Part shown: piece by piece, positions 40,199-48,215 of the stretch
How the letters are laid out: each line of letters starts with the position of its first letter
Position numbering within the stretch: position 1 is the stretch's first letter
DNA from: an uncultured SAR86 cluster bacterium
Lineage (GTDB): Bacteria; Pseudomonadota; Gammaproteobacteria; Magnimaribacterales; D2472
NCBI GenBank assembly: GCA_902591565.1
Contig: CACJBC010000007.1
Location: 1-49,238 of the forward strand
Direction of reading: 5' to 3'
Length of the DNA: 49,238 nt
Notes under the pieces: model-generated
Told to the model about the DNA's origin: nothing
The model's input: the letters and a program-made list of their open reading frames with translations, nothing else
Database searches by the model: none
Translations under genes and position numbers: made by a program

Positions 40199-40504
40199 TT
40201 AAGACATACCTTTAATTTTTTGAAGTGTTATCTCTGTTGAAGCACGCCTATGCTGTGATAGTTTTTGATAATCAGTATCTTTCCACCAATTATCTGCATC
40301 TTTTTCAGATGGAAATGAAAATATTATTACTCGATCAAATTGGTTTGGTGTACTACCTTCAAGACATTCTGGTGAATCATCATATGTAATAAAAGTTCCA
40401 TTATATTTTTTTAGGAATGGGAAAAAACCTTTTTCATAAATTCTATACTCTTTAGGATCATTTATTTTTAAATTAACAACCATAAAAACTGTTCTATTTG
40501 CCAT
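40199..40504 (-). CDS. DUF1330 family protein
   Basis: A 101-residue cytosolic protein of the dimeric alpha+beta barrel type. It matches the DUF1330 pattern: FMVVNLKINDPKEYRIYEKG at the start, LEGSTPNQFDRVIIFSFPSEKDADNWW in the middle, and YQKLSQHRRAS near the end. The biochemical role of the family is not known. It begins 32 bases after the exported-protein cluster with an AGGA ribosome binding site, so it may be co-transcribed, although it lacks a signal peptide and may be unrelated to that cluster. Confidence 0.85.
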   Translation of the reverse strand: MANRTVFMVVNLKINDPKEYRIYEKGFFPFLKKYNGTFITYDDSPECLEGSTPNQFDRVIIFSFPSEKDADNWWKDTDYQKLSQHRRASTEITLQKIKGMS

Positions 40505-40536: not shown

Positions 40537-40986
40537 CTATAAATCTTCTTCAAAGTCTAATCTTATTGTTTCAGAACTAATATCATCCTTATCTTTATCA
40601 TTAATTTTTAAATCACAAAATTTCAAATAATTTGTTTTTGATGATCCTTTAATATTAATTTTTTTCGGATCATATGTATATTCATATTCTATAGAAGATT
40701 GATTTACTTGAAAAATTCTTAACTCTGAATTTTTTATGCTGAAATTAAGTTTTTTATTAACAATAAAATGATTCCAGCATTTTTGTAAATCATCTTCATT
40801 ACGTCCAGAGATATTATATGAACGCCATGCATCAGAACGTATTATTTTATATGATTCTATTTGTGCCTCAGCATCAGTAAATGATACATCAGTGCCTTTT
40901 ACTTTAATAATTACTGTTTTCGGATAAGCCTCATAACTTAAAATCAATAAAAAAAAACATAATAGACTGATTCTAAAAATCGTCAT
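40537..40986 (-). CDS. Exported protein, last member of the CsgG-like cluster
   Basis: I place the start at the ATG at 40986 because it gives a clean signal peptide (TIFRISLLCFFLLILSYEAYP). An upstream ATG at 41031 would overlap the previous gene by 59 bases and add a poor N-terminus. The 149-residue product has a helix with Ala/Trp/Tyr pattern (DAEAQIESYKIIRSDAWRSY) resembling the N-terminal AxxxAxxxAWxxY helix of the 44462-45610 product. This suggests a stand-alone version of an LPP20-like domain. Two cysteines may pair. It ends in an acidic tail (LDFEEDL). No known family recognised. Confidence 0.65.
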   Translation of the reverse strand: MTIFRISLLCFFLLILSYEAYPKTVIIKVKGTDVSFTDAEAQIESYKIIRSDAWRSYNISGRNEDDLQKCWNHFIVNKKLNFSIKNSELRIFQVNQSSIEYEYTYDPKKINIKGSSKTNYLKFCDLKINDKDKDDISSETIRLDFEEDL

Positions 40987-42376
40987 CATCAAGACCCATA
41001 GAACCGCCATCATCATATTCATTAGATTCATATGGATTATCTTCTTGTGATGACTTTTCAGGAGCTTTGTCTAGAGAGTCTTGAATTTCACCTGCAAATT
41101 CTTGGCCAGAAGGTGTCCATGCTCTAACAACTATATATGTTGGTTGTTTATTTATTGGATGTCTCCAAAGTGCTGAATCAAGAGTTGTAACACCTCTTAG
41201 ATCACCACTGGCACTAGAACTTAATCTAGATTCAATATTTTTTTCTGAGTAATAATTAATTTCATTTGTAGAAGCGCTCTCGCTCGTTTGAGAAAGCTTA
41301 TCATATGCCTGAGTTTGCTCTATTGATTCCTTTTGAAATAATAAAATACCTCTATCAGCTTTAATAGTTGCTTCTGTTAAAGCAGCCTCTTCTGACATAC
41401 CAGAGCAATTTCCTTGACAGCCTGCTACACCCCAGCTGATTAGTGAGACCTCACCCCTAGCATTTTTAGTAGAATATGTACCAAACTGGCTAAATGCTTT
41501 TCTAGCACCCTCTTCGTCATATAAATCAGGAATTTGTTCGAATAACGATTTTTTTGGTTTTTTATCTTTAAGAATTTTCATATTTCCAGTTGCTATAGCA
41601 TCAGCAGTTTCTTGAACTTTTTCTGACCACAAATTCACCATACACATATTAACTCTTTTATCATTAGGTTTTGCATTTACGTAAGTAGCAATTGTTTTCA
41701 TTCCTCTTACAGTTCCTTGAGAGCTTGCTGTTATTTTATCTTTAAAATTTTTCTGATTAAGAATATCATCGATTAGCTCTTGTTTTTCTTCCTCAGATTT
41801 ATTTTTATCATTAAGTTTCTCTCTAGTTTCAGGATCAATTGCTTTATCAAGTTGCTGATTAATAAATAATTTAGCTTTGTCATACATATTCATGTCAGCG
41901 TAATCTTTTGTTTTATCTTCGTTTTCACTCATTGAACTGATATCTGGTTGTTTTTCACCTGAAGAAGATTTTTGAATTATCGATCTTGATACTTCACTTA
42001 CCATTTCTTGGTTTAAATAAGCCACAAGCTCACCTTTTGCTTTCATATTCGCAACAACGGATGCATCAAATAACGCATCAGGAAAGGATGAGCTTGATGG
42101 GTCTGCCTCAACAGTATCTGTTGCAATTGATATAAAAAATTTATCGCCATTTCTTTTTGTATTGAGACCTTCTTGCGGCCTACCACCAATTGATTTAGCT
42201 AAACCTTTATGAGTTCTTATAAACTTCTTGCATGATTCATCAGCTGTTTGGATACGCTCAAATGAAACTCCACCCTCTGTTACATCTGATGGATCCTCAG
42301 ATACTTCCTGAGCATTTAAGTTAACTATGAATATTATAATAAATACAATATGTACAGAATTTAATTTCTTTAACAC
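40973..42376 (-). CDS. Exported protein with two LPP20-like repeats
   Basis: The preferred start is GTG at 42376: it has AAAGAGG at proper spacing and gives a normal signal peptide (LKKLNSVHIVFIIIFIVNLNA). An ATG at 42445 adds 23 residues without a ribosome binding site. The 467-residue product appears internally duplicated. SSQGTVRGMKTIATY (about 218-232) and SASGDLRGVTTLDSA (about 388-402) end two similar regions, each starting with an Ala-rich helix and closing with a V-x-x-[AL]-W-[ST] strand, as in LPP20-like envelope proteins. Between them lie a lysine/glutamate-rich helical stretch and the Cys pair AGCQGNC. It ends in DDDDF. Function is unknown. Confidence 0.7.
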   Translation of the reverse strand: MLKKLNSVHIVFIIIFIVNLNAQEVSEDPSDVTEGGVSFERIQTADESCKKFIRTHKGLAKSIGGRPQEGLNTKRNGDKFFISIATDTVEADPSSSSFPDALFDASVVANMKAKGELVAYLNQEMVSEVSRSIIQKSSSGEKQPDISSMSENEDKTKDYADMNMYDKAKLFINQQLDKAIDPETREKLNDKNKSEEEKQELIDDILNQKNFKDKITASSQGTVRGMKTIATYVNAKPNDKRVNMCMVNLWSEKVQETADAIATGNMKILKDKKPKKSLFEQIPDLYDEEGARKAFSQFGTYSTKNARGEVSLISWGVAGCQGNCSGMSEEAALTEATIKADRGILLFQKESIEQTQAYDKLSQTSESASTNEINYYSEKNIESRLSSSASGDLRGVTTLDSALWRHPINKQPTYIVVRAWTPSGQEFAGEIQDSLDKAPEKSSQEDNPYESNEYDDGGSMGLDDDDF

Positions 42377-42454
42377 AATAAAACCTCTTTTTATATAGTA
42401 ACAAACCAATAAATAAAATAACAAATAGAAATAATTAATGCCCATTTAATTAGT

Positions 42455-43732
42455 TTACCAACCATCATCAAACTCCTTGTCTAACTTCTTTTTTAAATCT
42501 TCTTGTAGTTTACTTGAATCCTTTTTTGTTCTCTCTGGCATAGATCTAATAATAAAAGATTTCGGTTTAAAATCATTCAAAGCATCTTTCTTTGATAAAT
42601 TAACTATTTTTGCATAAGACATTTTTGAGGTAACTTCAGTTATTTCAATTATTCCGATTTGCATCTCTCTTCTGCCTAAACTTTCTTTTGTGTAAGAATC
42701 AATAATTTTGCTTCCATACTGTATTAATTTAAATTTTTGACCGACCTTAATTAAATCACCGCCTGTTCCAATTGTTAAAACATCACCATTGATGCTTTCT
42801 ACTACAAAAGGATAAATTGCCTCAAGTATTTTATATCCAGCTTTTTTTGCTGTTTCTTGAATGGCCTCTTGCAGAGCCAAATCAGTTCCATTTGATAAAT
42901 TAACAACTCCAGCAAGATTAACATTTAAATTTTGTGAGAACTTAACCTGTCCTGTTGCGACATCAATAACTCTAAAATTTAAATTTAAACTACCGACAGA
43001 TCTATTTATAATCTTATCAGTAGTTTTTAGTTTTATTTCTTTTTCATTTAATCGGAGACTATTTAATGTTCCAACTAATAAAAAATCAGCAACAAGTTCT
43101 TGCCCAAGTTTAACAAGTTGATTTGTAGGAACATTTCCTTGAGTTAGTCTAGATTTTTCTCCAGTAATTAAATTTTGATAATTTCTATCTAAAACTGTAA
43201 ATTTCCTAGTTTGAACTAAATAATTATTTACAGCATCAGTTAAAAGATTAGACACAGCATCGCCATTTAAGTCTGCTTGTTTAAATGAACAACATGACTG
43301 TCGAGGAATAAAGTCAATTATAGCTATTTTCTTTCTTTTTGCTGATTTAGGAAGTTTAAATTTTGCAATCTTAACCTCTAATTTAACTTTGACATTACCA
43401 CTTTGTGTTTTAGATTGATTTAAAATTTTATAACCATCTACTATTCCATTTGTTCTAGATTTAATTTCGTCCTGCATTTCTTTTTCATTTGAAAATTCAG
43501 AACCCTCATTTGTAGATTTTGATTGAGATCTAGTCTTTAAAAGAGTTTCAGATTCAATAGATTTTCCATTAACCATAGAAATTGCTTGAACTAATGCATC
43601 ATCCACAGCCTCATTTAAAGTTTGCCCGACACCTTCTGATTTAACATTTATAATATCTATATTAGCTTGGGCAAAAAGCGGCATAAAAAATAATGCCGCA
43701 CTTAATATTATTTTGCCGTTAAATCTATTCAT
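42455..43732 (-). CDS. CsgG/FlgT-like exported protein
   Basis: A 425-residue periplasmic protein with an ordinary signal peptide (about 1-23, ending AQA), unlike CsgG, which is a lipoprotein. Residues about 24-125 resemble a FlgT-N/LPP20-type domain (EGVGQTLNEAVDDALVQAI). Residues 133-305 are a CsgG/TolB-N-like domain: KKIAIIDFIP, FTVLDRNYQNLI, LVADFLLVGTL and FRVIDVATGQV. Residues 308-395 (INGDVLTIGTGGDLIKVGQKFKL) resemble the C-terminal domain of FlgT. No flagellar or curli genes are in the window, so neither role is implied. An adjacent Cys-Cys pair lies at 147-148, and the tail ends FDDGW. Confidence 0.8.
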   Translation of the reverse strand: MNRFNGKIILSAALFFMPLFAQANIDIINVKSEGVGQTLNEAVDDALVQAISMVNGKSIESETLLKTRSQSKSTNEGSEFSNEKEMQDEIKSRTNGIVDGYKILNQSKTQSGNVKVKLEVKIAKFKLPKSAKRKKIAIIDFIPRQSCCSFKQADLNGDAVSNLLTDAVNNYLVQTRKFTVLDRNYQNLITGEKSRLTQGNVPTNQLVKLGQELVADFLLVGTLNSLRLNEKEIKLKTTDKIINRSVGSLNLNFRVIDVATGQVKFSQNLNVNLAGVVNLSNGTDLALQEAIQETAKKAGYKILEAIYPFVVESINGDVLTIGTGGDLIKVGQKFKLIQYGSKIIDSYTKESLGRREMQIGIIEITEVTSKMSYAKIVNLSKKDALNDFKPKSFIIRSMPERTKKDSSKLQEDLKKKLDKEFDDGW

Positions 43733-43740
43733 TAATTTAT

Positions 43741-44448
43741 TTAAATGGCTCCTGATATATCAGAATCGTCGACTTCAACACCTTGAGATTTTGCCGATGT
43801 AACTAAATCTTTTCCGTTTGAAACTAATCCTTTAATTAAACCAGGCCCATTTTTTGCAATAGCCATACCTGTAGATAGAGATTTTTGTAATTTTCTTAAT
43901 TTCATAGGATTAGTTTTAACTTCAGATAAAGCTGATTTAGCCTCATCTGCGAAATCTTTCATAGGCCCTGATAGCTGAGATGTTCTATATACGGCTTTTA
44001 AGTATGGCGGTATAGCTTTTGTAAGATTTTTTTTAGCTTCATCTCCAAGCTCTTTATTTTCAGAAGCTAGCTTTGCAGTCTCTTCGGCACTACTCATAGT
44101 TTCTTCAATAACATCTTTAATGCCAGCACCTTTATTAATGTTTTCTGCTCTAATTTTTGCTTTTTCAGCACCAGTCTTATCTCCATAGGCTTCTTTAATT
44201 AAAGCTTCAGCTTGGGCGATATCAAATAAAACTGCTCTCATTTCACTTTCTAATTTTTCAGCGGCTGCAGCAGGATCCGTTGATGATTTTTCTTCAGTTT
44301 CTTCGCTTAAACCTGGTATACCTGGCATACCTGGAACTTTAGGTATTTCTGGTATTCCAGGAACTTTCGGTAGTTTTGGGAAAGCTTCAACATTGAACGC
44401 TACAATAATACTGCCTAATATTATTGAGCTTAATATATAGTTTTTCAT
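43741..44448 (-). CDS. Exported helical protein with period-3 proline N-terminus
   Basis: A 235-residue protein with a signal peptide ending VEA after residue 22. The mature N-terminus has Pro at 24, 27, 30, 33, 36, 39, 42 and 45, exactly every third residue, often followed by Gly or Lys, so a polyproline-II rod is likely. The rest (about 55-235) is Ala/Lys/Glu-rich and predicted helical, with no cysteine. The ribosome binding site AAGGAGA is strong. It sits between the two proteins carrying CsgG/TolB-N-like motifs and probably works with them. No known family recognised. Confidence 0.75.
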   Translation of the reverse strand: MKNYILSSIILGSIIVAFNVEAFPKLPKVPGIPEIPKVPGMPGIPGLSEETEEKSSTDPAAAAEKLESEMRAVLFDIAQAEALIKEAYGDKTGAEKAKIRAENINKGAGIKDVIEETMSSAEETAKLASENKELGDEAKKNLTKAIPPYLKAVYRTSQLSGPMKDFADEAKSALSEVKTNPMKLRKLQKSLSTGMAIAKNGPGLIKGLVSNGKDLVTSAKSQGVEVDDSDISGAI

Positions 44449-44461
44449 ATTTTTCTCCTTC

Positions 44462-45610
44462 TTATAATTTATAAATCAATGAGTTTATTGCTTCATTAAA
44501 AGCTTTTTTAAGTGCAAGATTTGCAGCAATAACATCTGACGAACCAAATGCTGTTTTAATTTCAGGGCCTACTGATGCTACCATTTCTGCAGCATAATCA
44601 TCATTATTAATTCTGTAGAGCTGAATATTAACCAGGACGTCTGCAGAATAGTTACCTGTGTCATAATCAACTTTTGGTACACTAGTATCAACAGTTCCAA
44701 GTAAGAGAAAATCAACGAAAGGTTTATTTAATCTTTCATAATTTAAATCAACTATATTCATTATAAGAGATTCTTGAGTATCAGGATTTATATTGGCACC
44801 ATAAATATGATCAGTATTTCCTAAAAACTCTGACGATATTACTCCATATAATTTTTCATAGCCAAGACGCCTATTAATCATATTATCTAACCAGGAAGGT
44901 GATCGAACACTCATTTGAAAAGGCTGCGCTACATCAGAAATTTGAGATACTGCAGACTGTAAGTCTCCAATTAAATATGTTCTTTGTGTAGCCTTTCTAG
45001 TTGTTTTGCCACCAGTTGTAATAGCTGAACGATTGGTAGTAGATTCAATGGATGATAATGATGTTCCATCGTCATTTATAATTGCATCTGTCTGTGAACT
45101 ATTTCTAGTTTCAGTTTGTTTGTTTATCTTTTCGTCAAAAATATTTGCAACATCAGTTTTTCTTGGAATAACCATTGCAACTATAGATTTTCCAATTAAG
45201 TCTGATCTTATTTGAGATGTGCTAGATAAATCCCTTAATTGAGCATTAACTTGTTGCTCATTAATATTTGCATTTATTACAACAGTATATGTTCTTGTAT
45301 CGTTGTCACATTCTGCAAATAATATTTTATAGTTGTTATCTACATATTCATCAAATTTTGATAAAAATGTATTTTTATTTGCATTGTATGCATCAATTTT
45401 TTCACGTGAAAAAGTATTAATATAATTGTTCCATGCGATTTCTTTTGCCTCTCTTATAGCACTCAAATGCAAACTTCTTTCTTTTGGCCTATTTTCTTTA
45501 GTGCATAGTCTTTTTGGTAGTTCTATGGTTGCTCGACCTTTATATTGACCAGATTCAATATTGGTAGCAAAGAGAAATGGAATAATTAATAATAGTATTT
45601 TAGTTTTCAT
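44462..45610 (-). CDS. Exported protein with LPP20-like and CsgG/TolB-N-like parts
   Basis: A 382-residue exported protein (signal peptide about 1-20). Residues about 45-120 hold an LPP20-like helix (AIREAKEIAWNNYINTF) and strands. Residues 138-158 (GKSIVAMVIPRKTDVANIFDE) resemble the first strand of CsgG/TolB-N domains. A Ser/Thr-rich insertion follows (165-205). FVDFLLLGTVDTSV (298-311) parallels ADFLLVGTLNSL in the 42455-43732 protein, then come strands and a final Ala-rich helix. It is therefore likely a diverged relative of CsgG. It overlaps the upstream gene by 11 bases. Confidence 0.7.
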   Translation of the reverse strand: MKTKILLLIIPFLFATNIESGQYKGRATIELPKRLCTKENRPKERSLHLSAIREAKEIAWNNYINTFSREKIDAYNANKNTFLSKFDEYVDNNYKILFAECDNDTRTYTVVINANINEQQVNAQLRDLSSTSQIRSDLIGKSIVAMVIPRKTDVANIFDEKINKQTETRNSSQTDAIINDDGTSLSSIESTTNRSAITTGGKTTRKATQRTYLIGDLQSAVSQISDVAQPFQMSVRSPSWLDNMINRRLGYEKLYGVISSEFLGNTDHIYGANINPDTQESLIMNIVDLNYERLNKPFVDFLLLGTVDTSVPKVDYDTGNYSADVLVNIQLYRINNDDYAAEMVASVGPEIKTAFGSSDVIAANLALKKAFNEAINSLIYKL

Positions 45611-46919
45611 AGTTTAACCTTAGCTCTTTTTTTAGATAATTTGAATTTTTTTTAAAAGTTTTTGCGTCAACTGAAACATAATTTTTAATATATTTTGTAT
45701 CTTGTAATCTTAAATTGTTTATATATTTGTATAAAAGCTCTTCAGTTGAGTTATTAAAATATTGCCAATCATTAACTGTATCTCCTTTTACAACTTTATT
45801 AACTAAACCATTTTTAACTGAATGTGTAAAATGAGTAATACCATAACTATTAGCCATACCATCAGCTGTCATAAAGCTTATATCTATATATGAAGCATAA
45901 GCATAAGCCTCAATACCATTATTCTCTTTAAGAAGAACTTTCTTTTGAGGTTTATTAAACGAAATATTAAATCCACGATCTATATCTGGTAGTTCAAGAT
46001 TAAATAACTCTTCTCTATCAGCAAATTTCATCTTTACCTGTCTACCAAGTGCATCACCTTCAGAATATGGAATTAGAGGAAACGAATAAATATCAGAAAA
46101 CCATTTAACAAATTGCTGGCCCACCCAGTCCTTATATTTTTTTTCTGAAAAAATGTTATTGTTTAAAAAATATAGATTTTTACTATCAAATGTTTCTCCA
46201 TTCTGAAAATTCAATGAATCATTCGATAAATTAATTTGATTGATGCCAACATTTTCGTCTGCGTACTTAATTTTATATGGATTTAGATTATTAATATAAG
46301 AAATAACAGGTTTCAAAACAGAACTTTTTTCAATAGAGTTAATTTTTATAGATTTATCAAAAAGCGTCTGCGCAATCTTGTCTTCATCCATACTAGTTAA
46401 AGAATTAACTTGATTCTTATCAAGAGTAAGGCCTAAATAAAAAGAAACAAATCTTATAAAATCAAGTTTTGATGATCTACTACAATTTTCTGAATAACTA
46501 TCAACATATGGCCTTGATGATTCATTTGGATAAGAAGATAGAATTAATTGATCTCTTGGATCATACAAAATAGTTTGAGTACTTAAAAAGTATGTATTAA
46601 CACATTTATTGTTATAGCTGTATGAATATACTCTTTCTTTATCGATTGCTACTACCAATGAAAGAGTTCCATCTTTTGAGTTATCTCTGTTATCAAAATA
46701 TAAGTTGTAAATCCTTGAATCATTATTTTTTAATTTTGATGAAATAATATTGGTTAGTATTTTGTTTGGAGTTTTATTAAATTTAACTGTATTGGGATAT
46801 TCATCTTCTATTGCACCAGTTGATGATATAAAAGATACATAACTAAATTGAACGTTTTCTGAAGAAGATAAGGTCGAAACAACGAAGAGAAAAATTATAA
46901 GATTAAATTTTCTTAACAT
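45600..46919 (-). CDS. Exported protein, first gene of the CsgG-like cluster
   Basis: A 439-residue protein with a signal peptide (about 1-20, ending STLSSS or near). I recognise no domain. It is rich in Asn, Ser, Tyr and Lys, with three cysteines in the first half, and looks mixed alpha/beta without membrane helices. A conserved-looking stretch is WVGQQFVKWFSDIYSFPLIPY (about 265-285). The ORF begins about 125 bases from divergent infA; AGGG lies about 12 bases before the ATG. The 11-base overlap with the next gene ties it to the operon. Confidence 0.72.
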   Translation of the reverse strand: MLRKFNLIIFLFVVSTLSSSENVQFSYVSFISSTGAIEDEYPNTVKFNKTPNKILTNIISSKLKNNDSRIYNLYFDNRDNSKDGTLSLVVAIDKERVYSYSYNNKCVNTYFLSTQTILYDPRDQLILSSYPNESSRPYVDSYSENCSRSSKLDFIRFVSFYLGLTLDKNQVNSLTSMDEDKIAQTLFDKSIKINSIEKSSVLKPVISYINNLNPYKIKYADENVGINQINLSNDSLNFQNGETFDSKNLYFLNNNIFSEKKYKDWVGQQFVKWFSDIYSFPLIPYSEGDALGRQVKMKFADREELFNLELPDIDRGFNISFNKPQKKVLLKENNGIEAYAYASYIDISFMTADGMANSYGITHFTHSVKNGLVNKVVKGDTVNDWQYFNNSTEELLYKYINNLRLQDTKYIKNYVSVDAKTFKKNSNYLKKELRLNYEN

Positions 46920-47043: not shown

Positions 47044-47262
47044 ATGGCCAAAGAAGATGCATTAGAATTTGATGGAGAAGTTATAGAAACTCTTCCCAAT
47101 ACTAAATTTAAAGTTAAATTAGATAATGGGCATATTATTACCGCTCATATATCTGGAAAAATGCGTAAACATTACATTCGCATTTTAACTGGGGATAAAG
47201 TTAAAGTTGAAATGACTCCATATGATCTAACTGTAGGAAGAATTACCTTTAGAGGCAGATAA
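47044..47262 (+). CDS. infA: Translation initiation factor IF-1
   Basis: A 72-residue OB-fold protein that binds the ribosomal A site during initiation. The sequence [18 protein letters not shown] at the start, [18 protein letters not shown] and the end GRITFRGR are diagnostic. The length is exactly that of E. coli IF-1. A TAGAAT -10-like element ends only 8 bases before the ATG and no Shine-Dalgarno is seen, so the mRNA may be leaderless or nearly so. In many relatives infA lies beside clpA; here it has moved away. Confidence 0.97.
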
Positions 47263-47270
47263 ATCTCGAA

Positions 47271-48215
47271 CTATACTGTTTTTTCAGATCTGAAGTGTTT
47301 AAAGAAAAAATATGTAGCTAATGCTGTAAGCAAGTGCCAAATACCATGTGCTTGTATTATTGAATCTGGCGAACATGATGCATGATCAGGAACCCCAGTT
47401 AACCATATTGCATAAGCACTTAAATAGGAAATCATACCAAAAATGAACCATATGTATGTTCTAGAATATTTTGGTTGTTCATTTGATAATACAGCTGGTA
47501 ACCAAAACAATATTATCCACCAATATTCATTAAAATTTTCAAATACTTCATATGGCATCGTCCCAAATAACATTAAAACTAAAAAACCAACAAAACCTGA
47601 TAGTAATCTAAAAATTGGTGACCAAAATTTATAAAGCATTTCAGAGATAACCCAGAATGATATAGAAACACCAAATAAGTTAAAATTAATACCTAATTCA
47701 AAGTCAGTAAACCATCTCCAAATTGAATAAATAATCACAATAGTTGTATATGTAATTAAAAATTGTTTAATGGTCCATTTGGACATACTGTAAACATTAA
47801 ATAGCCAGGGCAAAATAATATACATTATCATGCTTAAATTATCGGCCCAAGCACCCCACTCTGTATTAGTACCATGCATAAGCATTGATCCTGGACCTAA
47901 ATAAATTACAACTGATGCATAGAGAATAGAAATCGGACTAATACCGATAAAAGCATTATTTGAGTTTTTATTATCATTACATAAAATCCAAAAAAGATAT
48001 AAACCAACAAACATAAAGCCTAAATTACTTAGGGTATTAATAGGTTCTCTAAAAATGCCTTCTGAAACTCTTTCACACCATCTTGATGCTTCTCCAATTA
48101 AACTTGCAGATTCAGTTGATTGAATTAAACCTAAGGCGCTTAAGATAAAAAAGATTATTAGAAATATTAATGAAATAAAACATGCAACATAAAAATGGTA
48201 AAAATTTTTAGTCAA
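47271..48215 (-). CDS. Ceramidase-like (CREST superfamily) membrane hydrolase
   Basis: A 314-residue integral membrane protein with about seven or eight helices. Motifs of the alkaline ceramidase/CREST superfamily are all visible: [22 protein letters not shown], then [15 protein letters not shown], and near the end the metal ligands in [18 protein letters not shown]. By family knowledge the His and Asp residues bind zinc and hydrolyse an amide or related bond in a membrane lipid; the bacterial substrate is unknown. Its start overlaps the end of the amidohydrolase gene by 8 bases, so the two are co-transcribed. It converges on infA with 8 bases between stops. Confidence 0.82.

What the first reader, a model, noticed from the sequence alone, without database searches (positions are those of the whole stretch)
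40537..46919. Six-gene exported cluster with CsgG/FlgT-like and LPP20-like proteins: candidate undescribed envelope system
Six adjacent minus-strand genes all encode proteins with signal peptides and no membrane helices beyond them. Two share a CsgG/TolB-N motif ([AV]DFLL[VL]GT), one has two LPP20-like repeats, one is a helical protein with a proline rod, and two are unrecognised. Gaps and overlaps are short throughout. No curli subunits (CsgA/B/E/F), flagellar genes or PBP genes are nearby, so it is neither the curli system nor a plain LpoB locus. A periplasmic or outer-membrane assembly complex is the natural inference.
Basis: partly seen in the sequence, partly recalled or inferred. Interest (0 to 1): 0.75.

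Follow-up and report, generated by a model that had tools for sequence, protein, structure and literature searches.

The report
Conserved FlgT-like envelope gene cluster
Six neighbouring genes for exported proteins in a tiny-genome ocean bacterium form a real, conserved unit built around a relative of a flagellar ring protein, although the bacterium appears to have no flagellum, so the unit probably builds an undescribed structure in the cell envelope.

Summary
In detail: six minus-strand genes (40537-46919) encode exported proteins without further membrane helices, in a SAR86 genome. They are a conserved unit. In the order, 10 of 199 genomes carry g2; eight of these, the window included, have all six genes in order, one is cut by a contig end and one has g1-g4 only. 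A core g1-g2-g3-g4 keeps its order in Cupriavidus metallidurans CH34 and two unnamed gammaproteobacterial families, and occurs rearranged in two further loci.

Main correction: g4 is closest to FlgT, not CsgG. Its model aligns to FlgT over 405 columns (Foldseek E 2.2e-19; CsgG 4.8e-7), although domain placement differs. FlgI was not found in the four SAR86 carriers tested. g5 is an internally duplicated DUF6844 protein; its family has a solved but unexplained structure, 4QVR. g4 and g5 end in acidic tails with a terminal W/Y or F.

Best reading: a non-flagellar FlgT-type ring or collar in the envelope. Ring formation, complex and function are inferred. No description was found in the open library searched.

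The parts
45600..46919 (-). g1: 439-aa exported protein, first gene of the core; no known family
   Evidence: ORF; no credible Pfam, NCBIfam or PDB match; homologs first in order in SAR86, f16, Cupriavidus and f110 loci
44462..45610 (-). g2: 382-aa exported protein; N-terminal domain (about 20-130) weakly LPP20/FlgT_N-like, then a CsgG/TolB-N-type fold with a polar, low-confidence insert at about residues 152-212
   Evidence: AF2 model pLDDT 68.8; VIA Z 8.8 (rmsd 4.2, 173 aligned) to LPHT-ring chain 8z5n_0, 8.7 to CsgG 4q79 and TolB 1crz, 6.6 (4.6, 98) to Lpp20; Foldseek best is CT253, E 9e-4
43741..44448 (-). g3: 235-aa exported protein, probably helical (by sequence reading; no model made); Pro-rich linker only in some members
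   Evidence: ORF; alignment; no PDB relative at E up to 5
42455..43732 (-). g4: 425-aa FlgT-like protein with domains at about 24-127, 130-307 (CsgG/FlgT_M type) and 308-398 (FlgT_C/TsaP type); ends in FDDGW
   Evidence: Pfam CsgG 1.8e-8; model pLDDT 70; Foldseek FlgT 3w1e E 2.2e-19 over 405 columns; VIA Z 15.2, rmsd 3.1, 153 aligned, middle domain only; C-domain hits TsaP E 1.6e-5
   Evidence: hhalign to DUF6844-type proteins, probability 99.5 over 351 columns; halves match at probability 84
40537..40989 (-). g6: 150-aa exported protein overlapping g5 by 17 nt; detected only in SAR86-type loci
   Evidence: alignment-based start; present in the ten SAR86-type loci that have g5 (and 16 and 24 for L016)
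47044..47262 (+). infA (IF-1), divergent from g1; 124-nt spacer between
   Evidence: 72-aa ORF, named from recall; a near-identical ORF lies beside g1 in L015
46923..46951 (-). promoter-like site with TG before the -10, just upstream of g1; weak
   Evidence: consensus scan; such sites are not more frequent than in shuffles (33 found, mean 42.3)

Best explanation
The cluster encodes one envelope assembly in which g4 acts as FlgT does: a three-domain protein that multimerises into a periplasmic ring or collar at the outer membrane. g2 (a weakly LPP20/FlgT_N-like plus a CsgG-like domain) would be a second ring or adaptor subunit, g5 (duplicated DUF6844) and g6 an outer layer present in most SAR86 versions, and g1 and g3 dedicated partners. 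SHOWN: conserved linkage and order; export features; FlgT as best structural match of g4; duplication and family of g5; no FlgI detected in four SAR86 carriers; acidic tails ending in W/Y (g4) and F (g5). INFERRED: ring formation, physical complex, outer-membrane position, and that the g4 tail docks onto g1-g3 (19 of 20 g4 proteins read from loci with g1-g3 end in an aromatic residue, 0 of 6 from loci without). What the ring would surround is unknown; a secretin-domain protein is the one candidate tested that is common in these genomes.
For: Six-gene order in eight of the 10 SAR86 genomes with g2, plus contig L025; four-gene order in Cupriavidus, f16 and f110. g4 to FlgT 3w1e E 2.2e-19 and to LPHT-ring chain 8z5n_0 (presumably FlgT) 3.0e-19; CsgG next at 4.8e-7, LpoB 5.3e-5. 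g4 C-domain matches TsaP, E 1.6e-5; TsaP's tie to secretins is recalled. FlgI not found in 5 of 12 tested genomes with the g1-g4 cluster, among them 4 of 4 SAR86. In high-GC relatives g4 has a lipobox-like A/G-C after the hydrophobic stretch. FlgT, FlgO and FlgP make the Vibrio H ring (PMC7693769, passages).
Against: No oligomer was predicted or observed. Foldseek's full-length alignment has TM-score 0.30 and rmsd 25, so domain placement differs from FlgT; VIA places only the middle domain, where FlgT (15.2) is tied with CT253 of Chlamydia (14.4). The fold also occurs in LpoB and TolB, not known to me as ring formers. g2's match is near the noise level. FlgI is present in 7 of the 12 cluster genomes tested, and six other SAR86 carriers were not tested. 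Secretin: found in 6 of 6 SAR86 non-carriers but 6 of 10 SAR86 carriers; G036, 90% complete, has g1-g4 and no detected secretin. LpoB proteins beside DUF6844 also end in W, so that ending is not peculiar to g4. g1 and g3 are tied in by linkage alone.
Confidence: 0.45

Rival explanations
1. Outer-membrane export or secretion device: g4 and/or g2 form a CsgG- or PelC-like collar or pore that passes a polymer or protein, with g5/g6 as exported or surface products.
For: Pfam CsgG over cut-off; CsgG and PelC among structural matches; the g5-family protein FTT_1539c is listed as immunoreactive in a study of mice given outer-membrane vesicles (PMC10963506, passage).
Against: FlgT matches far better than CsgG in Foldseek. 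The g4 model has one long hairpin (217-257) with a charged tip and no second one, so a CsgG-type barrel is unlikely (CsgG barrel anatomy recalled). I saw no constant neighbour gene in the loci opened that would be a substrate or polysaccharide synthase, by reading the ORF lists.
Confidence: 0.2
2. Peptidoglycan-synthase regulation: the cluster is an elaborated LpoB-like system that activates penicillin-binding proteins.
For: g4 passes Pfam's LpoB cut-off, 23.8 against 22.3. In Azospirillum sp. TSH100 and in G286 the DUF6844-g4 pair sits beside a true LpoB (TIGR02722, 145 and 205 bits, cut-off 110.55).
Against: LpoB ranks well below FlgT and CsgG. The window's g4 has no NCBIfam LpoB hit. I saw no separate LpoB-like gene in the g1-g4 loci with the g4 profile, though those loci were not scanned with the LpoB model.
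Confidence: 0.15
3. Loose collection: co-transcribed but independent periplasmic proteins kept together by transfer as an operon, without forming a complex.
For: Patchy distribution (10 of 199 in the order; 4 of 369 in the class sample, one without the cluster) and different genomic sites in different genera.
Against: Gene trees are broadly parallel (pairwise distance r 0.75-0.92; shared descent alone would also give this). Order is kept down to about 20% identity. The aromatic tail of g4 tracks the presence of g1-g3.
Confidence: 0.15

Closest known systems
FlgT of the Vibrio flagellar H ring (PDB 3W1E; LPHT ring 8Z5N)
   Same: Best structural match of g4 over nearly its whole length; exported
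   Different: About 15% identity; different domain placement in the model; FlgI not found in four SAR86 carriers; different gene neighbours; acidic-aromatic tail
CsgG curli secretion channel
   Same: Middle domain of g4, and probably of g2
   Different: No curli genes among the neighbours scanned; one hairpin in the g4 model; extra N- and C-terminal domains
DUF6844 / FTT_1539c (PDB 4QVR, Francisella)
   Same: g5 is a distant, nearly full-length relative; in all five other DUF6844 hits of the class sample a g4-like gene lies beside it
   Different: g5 scores just below Pfam's cut-off and belongs to the g1-g6 cluster; the Francisella-like locus has LpoB and another protein instead of g1-g3
TsaP
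   Same: C-terminal domain of g4 (E 1.6e-5)
   Different: No LysM match in g4; extra FlgT-type domains
LpoB
   Same: Fold of the g4 middle domain; beside DUF6844-g4 in some genomes
   Different: g4 is longer, multi-domain and has no NCBIfam LpoB hit

Membership tests
Flagellar FlgT / H ring | FlgT_N-FlgT_M-FlgT_C domain plan | tested here: met
   Foldseek to 3w1e, E 2.2e-19 over 405 columns, but TM-score 0.30; VIA confirms only the middle domain, Z 15.2, tied with CT253; FlgT_M sequence hits only below cut-off and in relatives
Flagellar FlgT / H ring | Serves a flagellar basal body | tested here: not met
   No FlgI in G000, G014, G008, G036 (71-92% complete), nor in G467, G148, G286, G324; found in 9 of 17
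CsgG curli secretion system | CsgG domain | tested here: met
   PF03783 34.4 bits against cut-off 20.8
CsgG curli secretion system | Two membrane hairpins forming the barrel (recalled) | tested here: inconclusive
   One long hairpin 217-257 in a moderate-confidence model
CsgG curli secretion system | CsgA/B/E/F genes | tested here: inconclusive
   None among the 9 proteins of the neighbourhood scanned; not searched genome-wide
LpoB / PBP1B activator | NCBI LpoB equivalog TIGR02722 | tested here: not met
   No NCBIfam hit for the window's g4 at E up to 1
DUF6844 (PF20891) | Homology to DUF6844 proteins over most of the length | tested here: met
   hhalign probability 99.5 over 351 columns; single-sequence Pfam score 23.6, below cut-off 27
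LPP20 family | LPP20 domain in g5 | tested here: inconclusive
   No Pfam LPP20 hit; internal duplication only

The most novel reading that the evidence does not exclude
A non-flagellar H-ring-like machine: a dispersed operon (g1-g2-g3-g4, plus g5-g6 in most SAR86 versions) that builds a FlgT-type collar, also in bacteria without flagella. Its subunits are held together by acidic, aromatic-ended C-terminal tails of g4 and g5 that dock into g1-g3, and the collar stabilises an outer-membrane machine such as a secretin.
Probability: 0.25. Interest if true: 0.75.

Novelty: new variant of a known kind. Interest (0 to 1): 0.52.

Why it matters
SAR86 is an abundant ocean lineage (recalled) with very small genomes, so a roughly 6.4-kb exported cluster kept as a unit is unlikely to be idle. 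If the FlgT reading is right, flagellar H-ring parts have kin that work without a flagellum, which bears on where those rings came from. It also gives a family context to DUF6844, which has a solved structure and a known immunoreactive member but no function that I could find.

Tried and rejected
Curli locus: no curli partner among neighbours scanned, and FlgT fits better. Anti-phage defence: no PADLOC match for the six proteins. Viral origin: pattern-based scans of viral contigs gave no relative of g2 or g4. Cluster in Bacteroidota: contig NYWQ01000056.1 is labelled Flavobacteriales, but its argH-like gene is 59% identical to genes of SAR86 G014 and G018 (5 of the 8 SAR86 genomes asked gave no match, and G065 31%), so I treat it as probable mis-binning. 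g2 and g4 as whole-protein homologs: hhalign probability 0.2, 13% for the middle domains; their kinship rests on structure only. G461 and G681 hits: neighbourhoods lack the cluster; not counted as carriers. g1 and g3 in the PDB: nothing credible. Secretin co-occurrence: no positive link. The single-sequence search with g5 and the SAR86-only g5 profile did not find 4QVR; only the broader profile did, and that one already held an annotated DUF6844 protein (L045). Open-library searches were used for background only (listings; passages of one paper).

Full report
OBSERVATION. Two starts are better set further in: g5 at a GTG at 42376, preceded by AAGAGG, and g6 at an ATG at 40989, both in line with relatives. 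With these starts the spacings are -11, +13, +8, +78 and -17 nt, and a hydropathy scan finds an N-terminal hydrophobic stretch in all six and none above 1.08 later. The cluster runs away from infA (47044-47262, plus strand; named from recall). The promoter-like site before g1 is weak, and such sites are not enriched over shuffles.

HOST. One search names three of four related contigs as uncultured SAR86. The window's genome is 1.07 Mb, 83% complete.

CONSERVATION INSIDE SAR86. A g2 profile that includes four of the ten genomes it found (and L025) hits 10 of 199 genomes of the order, 2 of 40 among those at least 90% complete and at most 5% contaminated. I opened all ten. The window, G014, G965, G960, G940, G918, G943 and G946 (eight) have g1 to g6 in the same order and strand; in G918 the g1 frame is shortened at its N-terminus (380 aa). 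G008 has g2-g6 and ends at a contig edge. G036 has g1-g4 only, and g5 was not found elsewhere in G036. A further contig, NYWQ01000056.1 (L025), has all six; it is labelled Flavobacteriales, but its argH-like gene is 59% identical to that of two SAR86 genomes, so I read it as probably SAR86. Sites differ between genera: beside infA and a ceramidase-like gene in the window and G014, beside an SDR gene and rpsT in G036 (names partly recalled), elsewhere in others.

CONSERVATION OUTSIDE SAR86. Profile searches found g1-g2-g3-g4 in the same order in five of 149 genomes of an unnamed high-GC family, f16, including the one (G372) already in the profile (opened); in G839 and G790 of unnamed family f110; and in Cupriavidus metallidurans CH34 (NC_007974.2, about 2457093-2461430, minus strand). 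Rearranged versions occur in Caballeronia sp. SBC2 (g4, a weak g5-like gene, an ORF, g1, g2, g3) and in G416 (g5, g2, g4, g3, g1, between trp-type genes by recall). In all, 18 of 21 loci opened with the cluster keep g1-g2-g3-g4 in order, one is cut by a contig end and two are rearranged. Survey rates are low: 4 of 369 in the class sample, one (G461) without the cluster, and 5 of 299 in the phylum sample, one (G681) without the cluster. Surveys were anchored on g2; g4 and g5 were also searched alone in 101 relatives, but g1, g3 and g6 never were. Gene trees for 18 loci are broadly parallel (r 0.75-0.92); the SAR86 split was recovered for g1, g2 and g4 but not g3, and the split grouping f16, Cupriavidus and f110 for g2, g3 and g4 but not g1.

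WHAT THE PROTEINS ARE. g4: Pfam CsgG 1.8e-8 and LpoB 4.7e-5. The AF2 model (pLDDT 70, five sequences) matches FlgT 3w1e at E 2.2e-19 over 405 columns and an LPHT-ring chain, presumably FlgT, at 3.0e-19; CsgG follows at 4.8e-7 and LpoB at 5.3e-5. The whole-chain TM-score is low (0.30, rmsd 25), so domains match but their relative placement does not. The second aligner places only the middle domain (FlgT Z 15.2, rmsd 3.1, 153 aligned), tied there with CT253 (14.4) and ahead of TolB (13.0) and CsgG (11.5). The C-terminal domain matches TsaP at 1.6e-5. g2: an N-terminal domain weakly like Lpp20 (Z 6.6, rmsd 4.6, 98 aligned) and a CsgG/TolB-type domain (Z about 8.7), both near the noise level for such comparisons. 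g5: DUF6844 family (hhalign 99.5%), internally duplicated. A broad g5 profile hits PDB 4QVR, Francisella FTT_1539c, at 3.7e-35, though a SAR86-only profile and the single sequence do not; a DUF6844 protein of genome G286 matches 4QVR end to end. g1, g3 and g6: no known family (PDB for g1 and g3).

TAILS. g4 ends in W or Y in 19 of 20 proteins read from loci that also have g1-g3 (15 W, 4 Y; the exception is G416; L035 not read), and in 0 of 6 from loci without g1-g3. g5/DUF6844 ends in F in 18 of 18 proteins read, counting the weak Caballeronia one; 4QVR ends in Y. In the window only these two of 40 ORFs of at least 150 aa combine an aromatic end with three or more acidic residues in the last eight; with six further SAR86-type loci it is 9 of 124, seven of them g4 or g5. 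Relatedness confounds these counts, and the LpoB proteins beside DUF6844 in L045, L060 and L061 also end in W.

SECOND NEIGHBOURHOOD. DUF6844 was found in 6 of 229 class genomes, including the window's (below cut-off there); in the other five a g4-like gene lies directly beside it. In Azospirillum sp. TSH100 the order is a hypothetical protein, YcfL, LpoB, DUF6844, g4; in the Francisella-like genomes LpoB, DUF6844, a CsgG-like protein, then a protein with no Pfam or NCBIfam hit (families scanned in G286 only). So g5 and g4 look like an older pair that was joined to g1-g3, or lost from them, in different lineages (inference).

MECHANISM. FlgT, FlgO and FlgP are placed in the proximal, medial and distal H ring of Vibrio motors (PMC7693769, passages). 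FlgI, a P-ring protein, was searched in 17 genomes: 9 have it. Of the 12 with the g1-g4 cluster, 5 lack it (four SAR86 and G467) and 7 have it; of the 5 with DUF6844-g4 only, 3 lack it (control genomes rang in 3 of 14). A FlgT-type protein kept without a flagellum most simply suggests a collar for something else. Secretin domains are present in 20 of 24 genomes: 6 of 6 SAR86 non-carriers, 6 of 10 SAR86 carriers and 8 of 8 others, so a secretin is possible as partner but not singled out; some carriers without it are incomplete.

PRINT. Searches of the open library found no paper with DUF6844, none with CsgG, LPP20, operon and FlgT together, four with loosely related terms, none relevant by listing, none with COG3014 and LpoB, two unrelated for TsaP/FlgT/CsgG (listing), and one unrelated for SAR86 and CsgG (listing). 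FTT1539 appears as an immunoreactive protein in PMC10963506 and PMC4207810 (passages), without a function there. Subscription journals are mostly not held, so description elsewhere is not excluded.

VERDICT. A real, conserved envelope gene cluster, undescribed in the library searched; a new variant built from known folds, with the FlgT relation as the main new fact and the function open.

Noticed in passing
L018:7957-9788, L019:7755-9616, L020:8125-9960: Other SAR86 genomes (G065, G050, G009) carry a tandem pair of about 300-aa CsgG-type proteins that match the g4 profile, without g1-g3 beside them (Pfam CsgG checked for L018 only).
   Followed up: partly
window 40973-43732: Acidic C-terminal tails with a terminal W (g4) and F (g5), resembling in form the docking tail of single-stranded DNA-binding protein (comparison recalled).
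   Followed up: partly
L059:6857-15001: G681 has an array of genes of which several match the g2 or g4 profiles weakly; perhaps another FlgT/CsgG-type envelope cluster.
   Followed up: no
L025 (NYWQ01000056.1): Contig labelled Flavobacteriales looks like SAR86; its bin may be contaminated.
   Followed up: partly
window 47271-48215: Membrane protein matching Pfam Ceramidase (3.8e-15) next to infA.
   Followed up: no
window 40199-40504: DUF1330 protein (1.7e-20) directly after g6; a similar ORF follows the cluster in G014 but not in G008. Probably not part of the unit.
   Followed up: partly
window 44975-45157: Serine/threonine-rich polar insert in g2 after the first strand of its CsgG-type domain, low model confidence, with a conserved GG pair.
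   Followed up: no
L060:9142-9747, L061:6790-7398, L045:6961-7593: LpoB-type proteins beside DUF6844 end in W, like g4.
   Followed up: no
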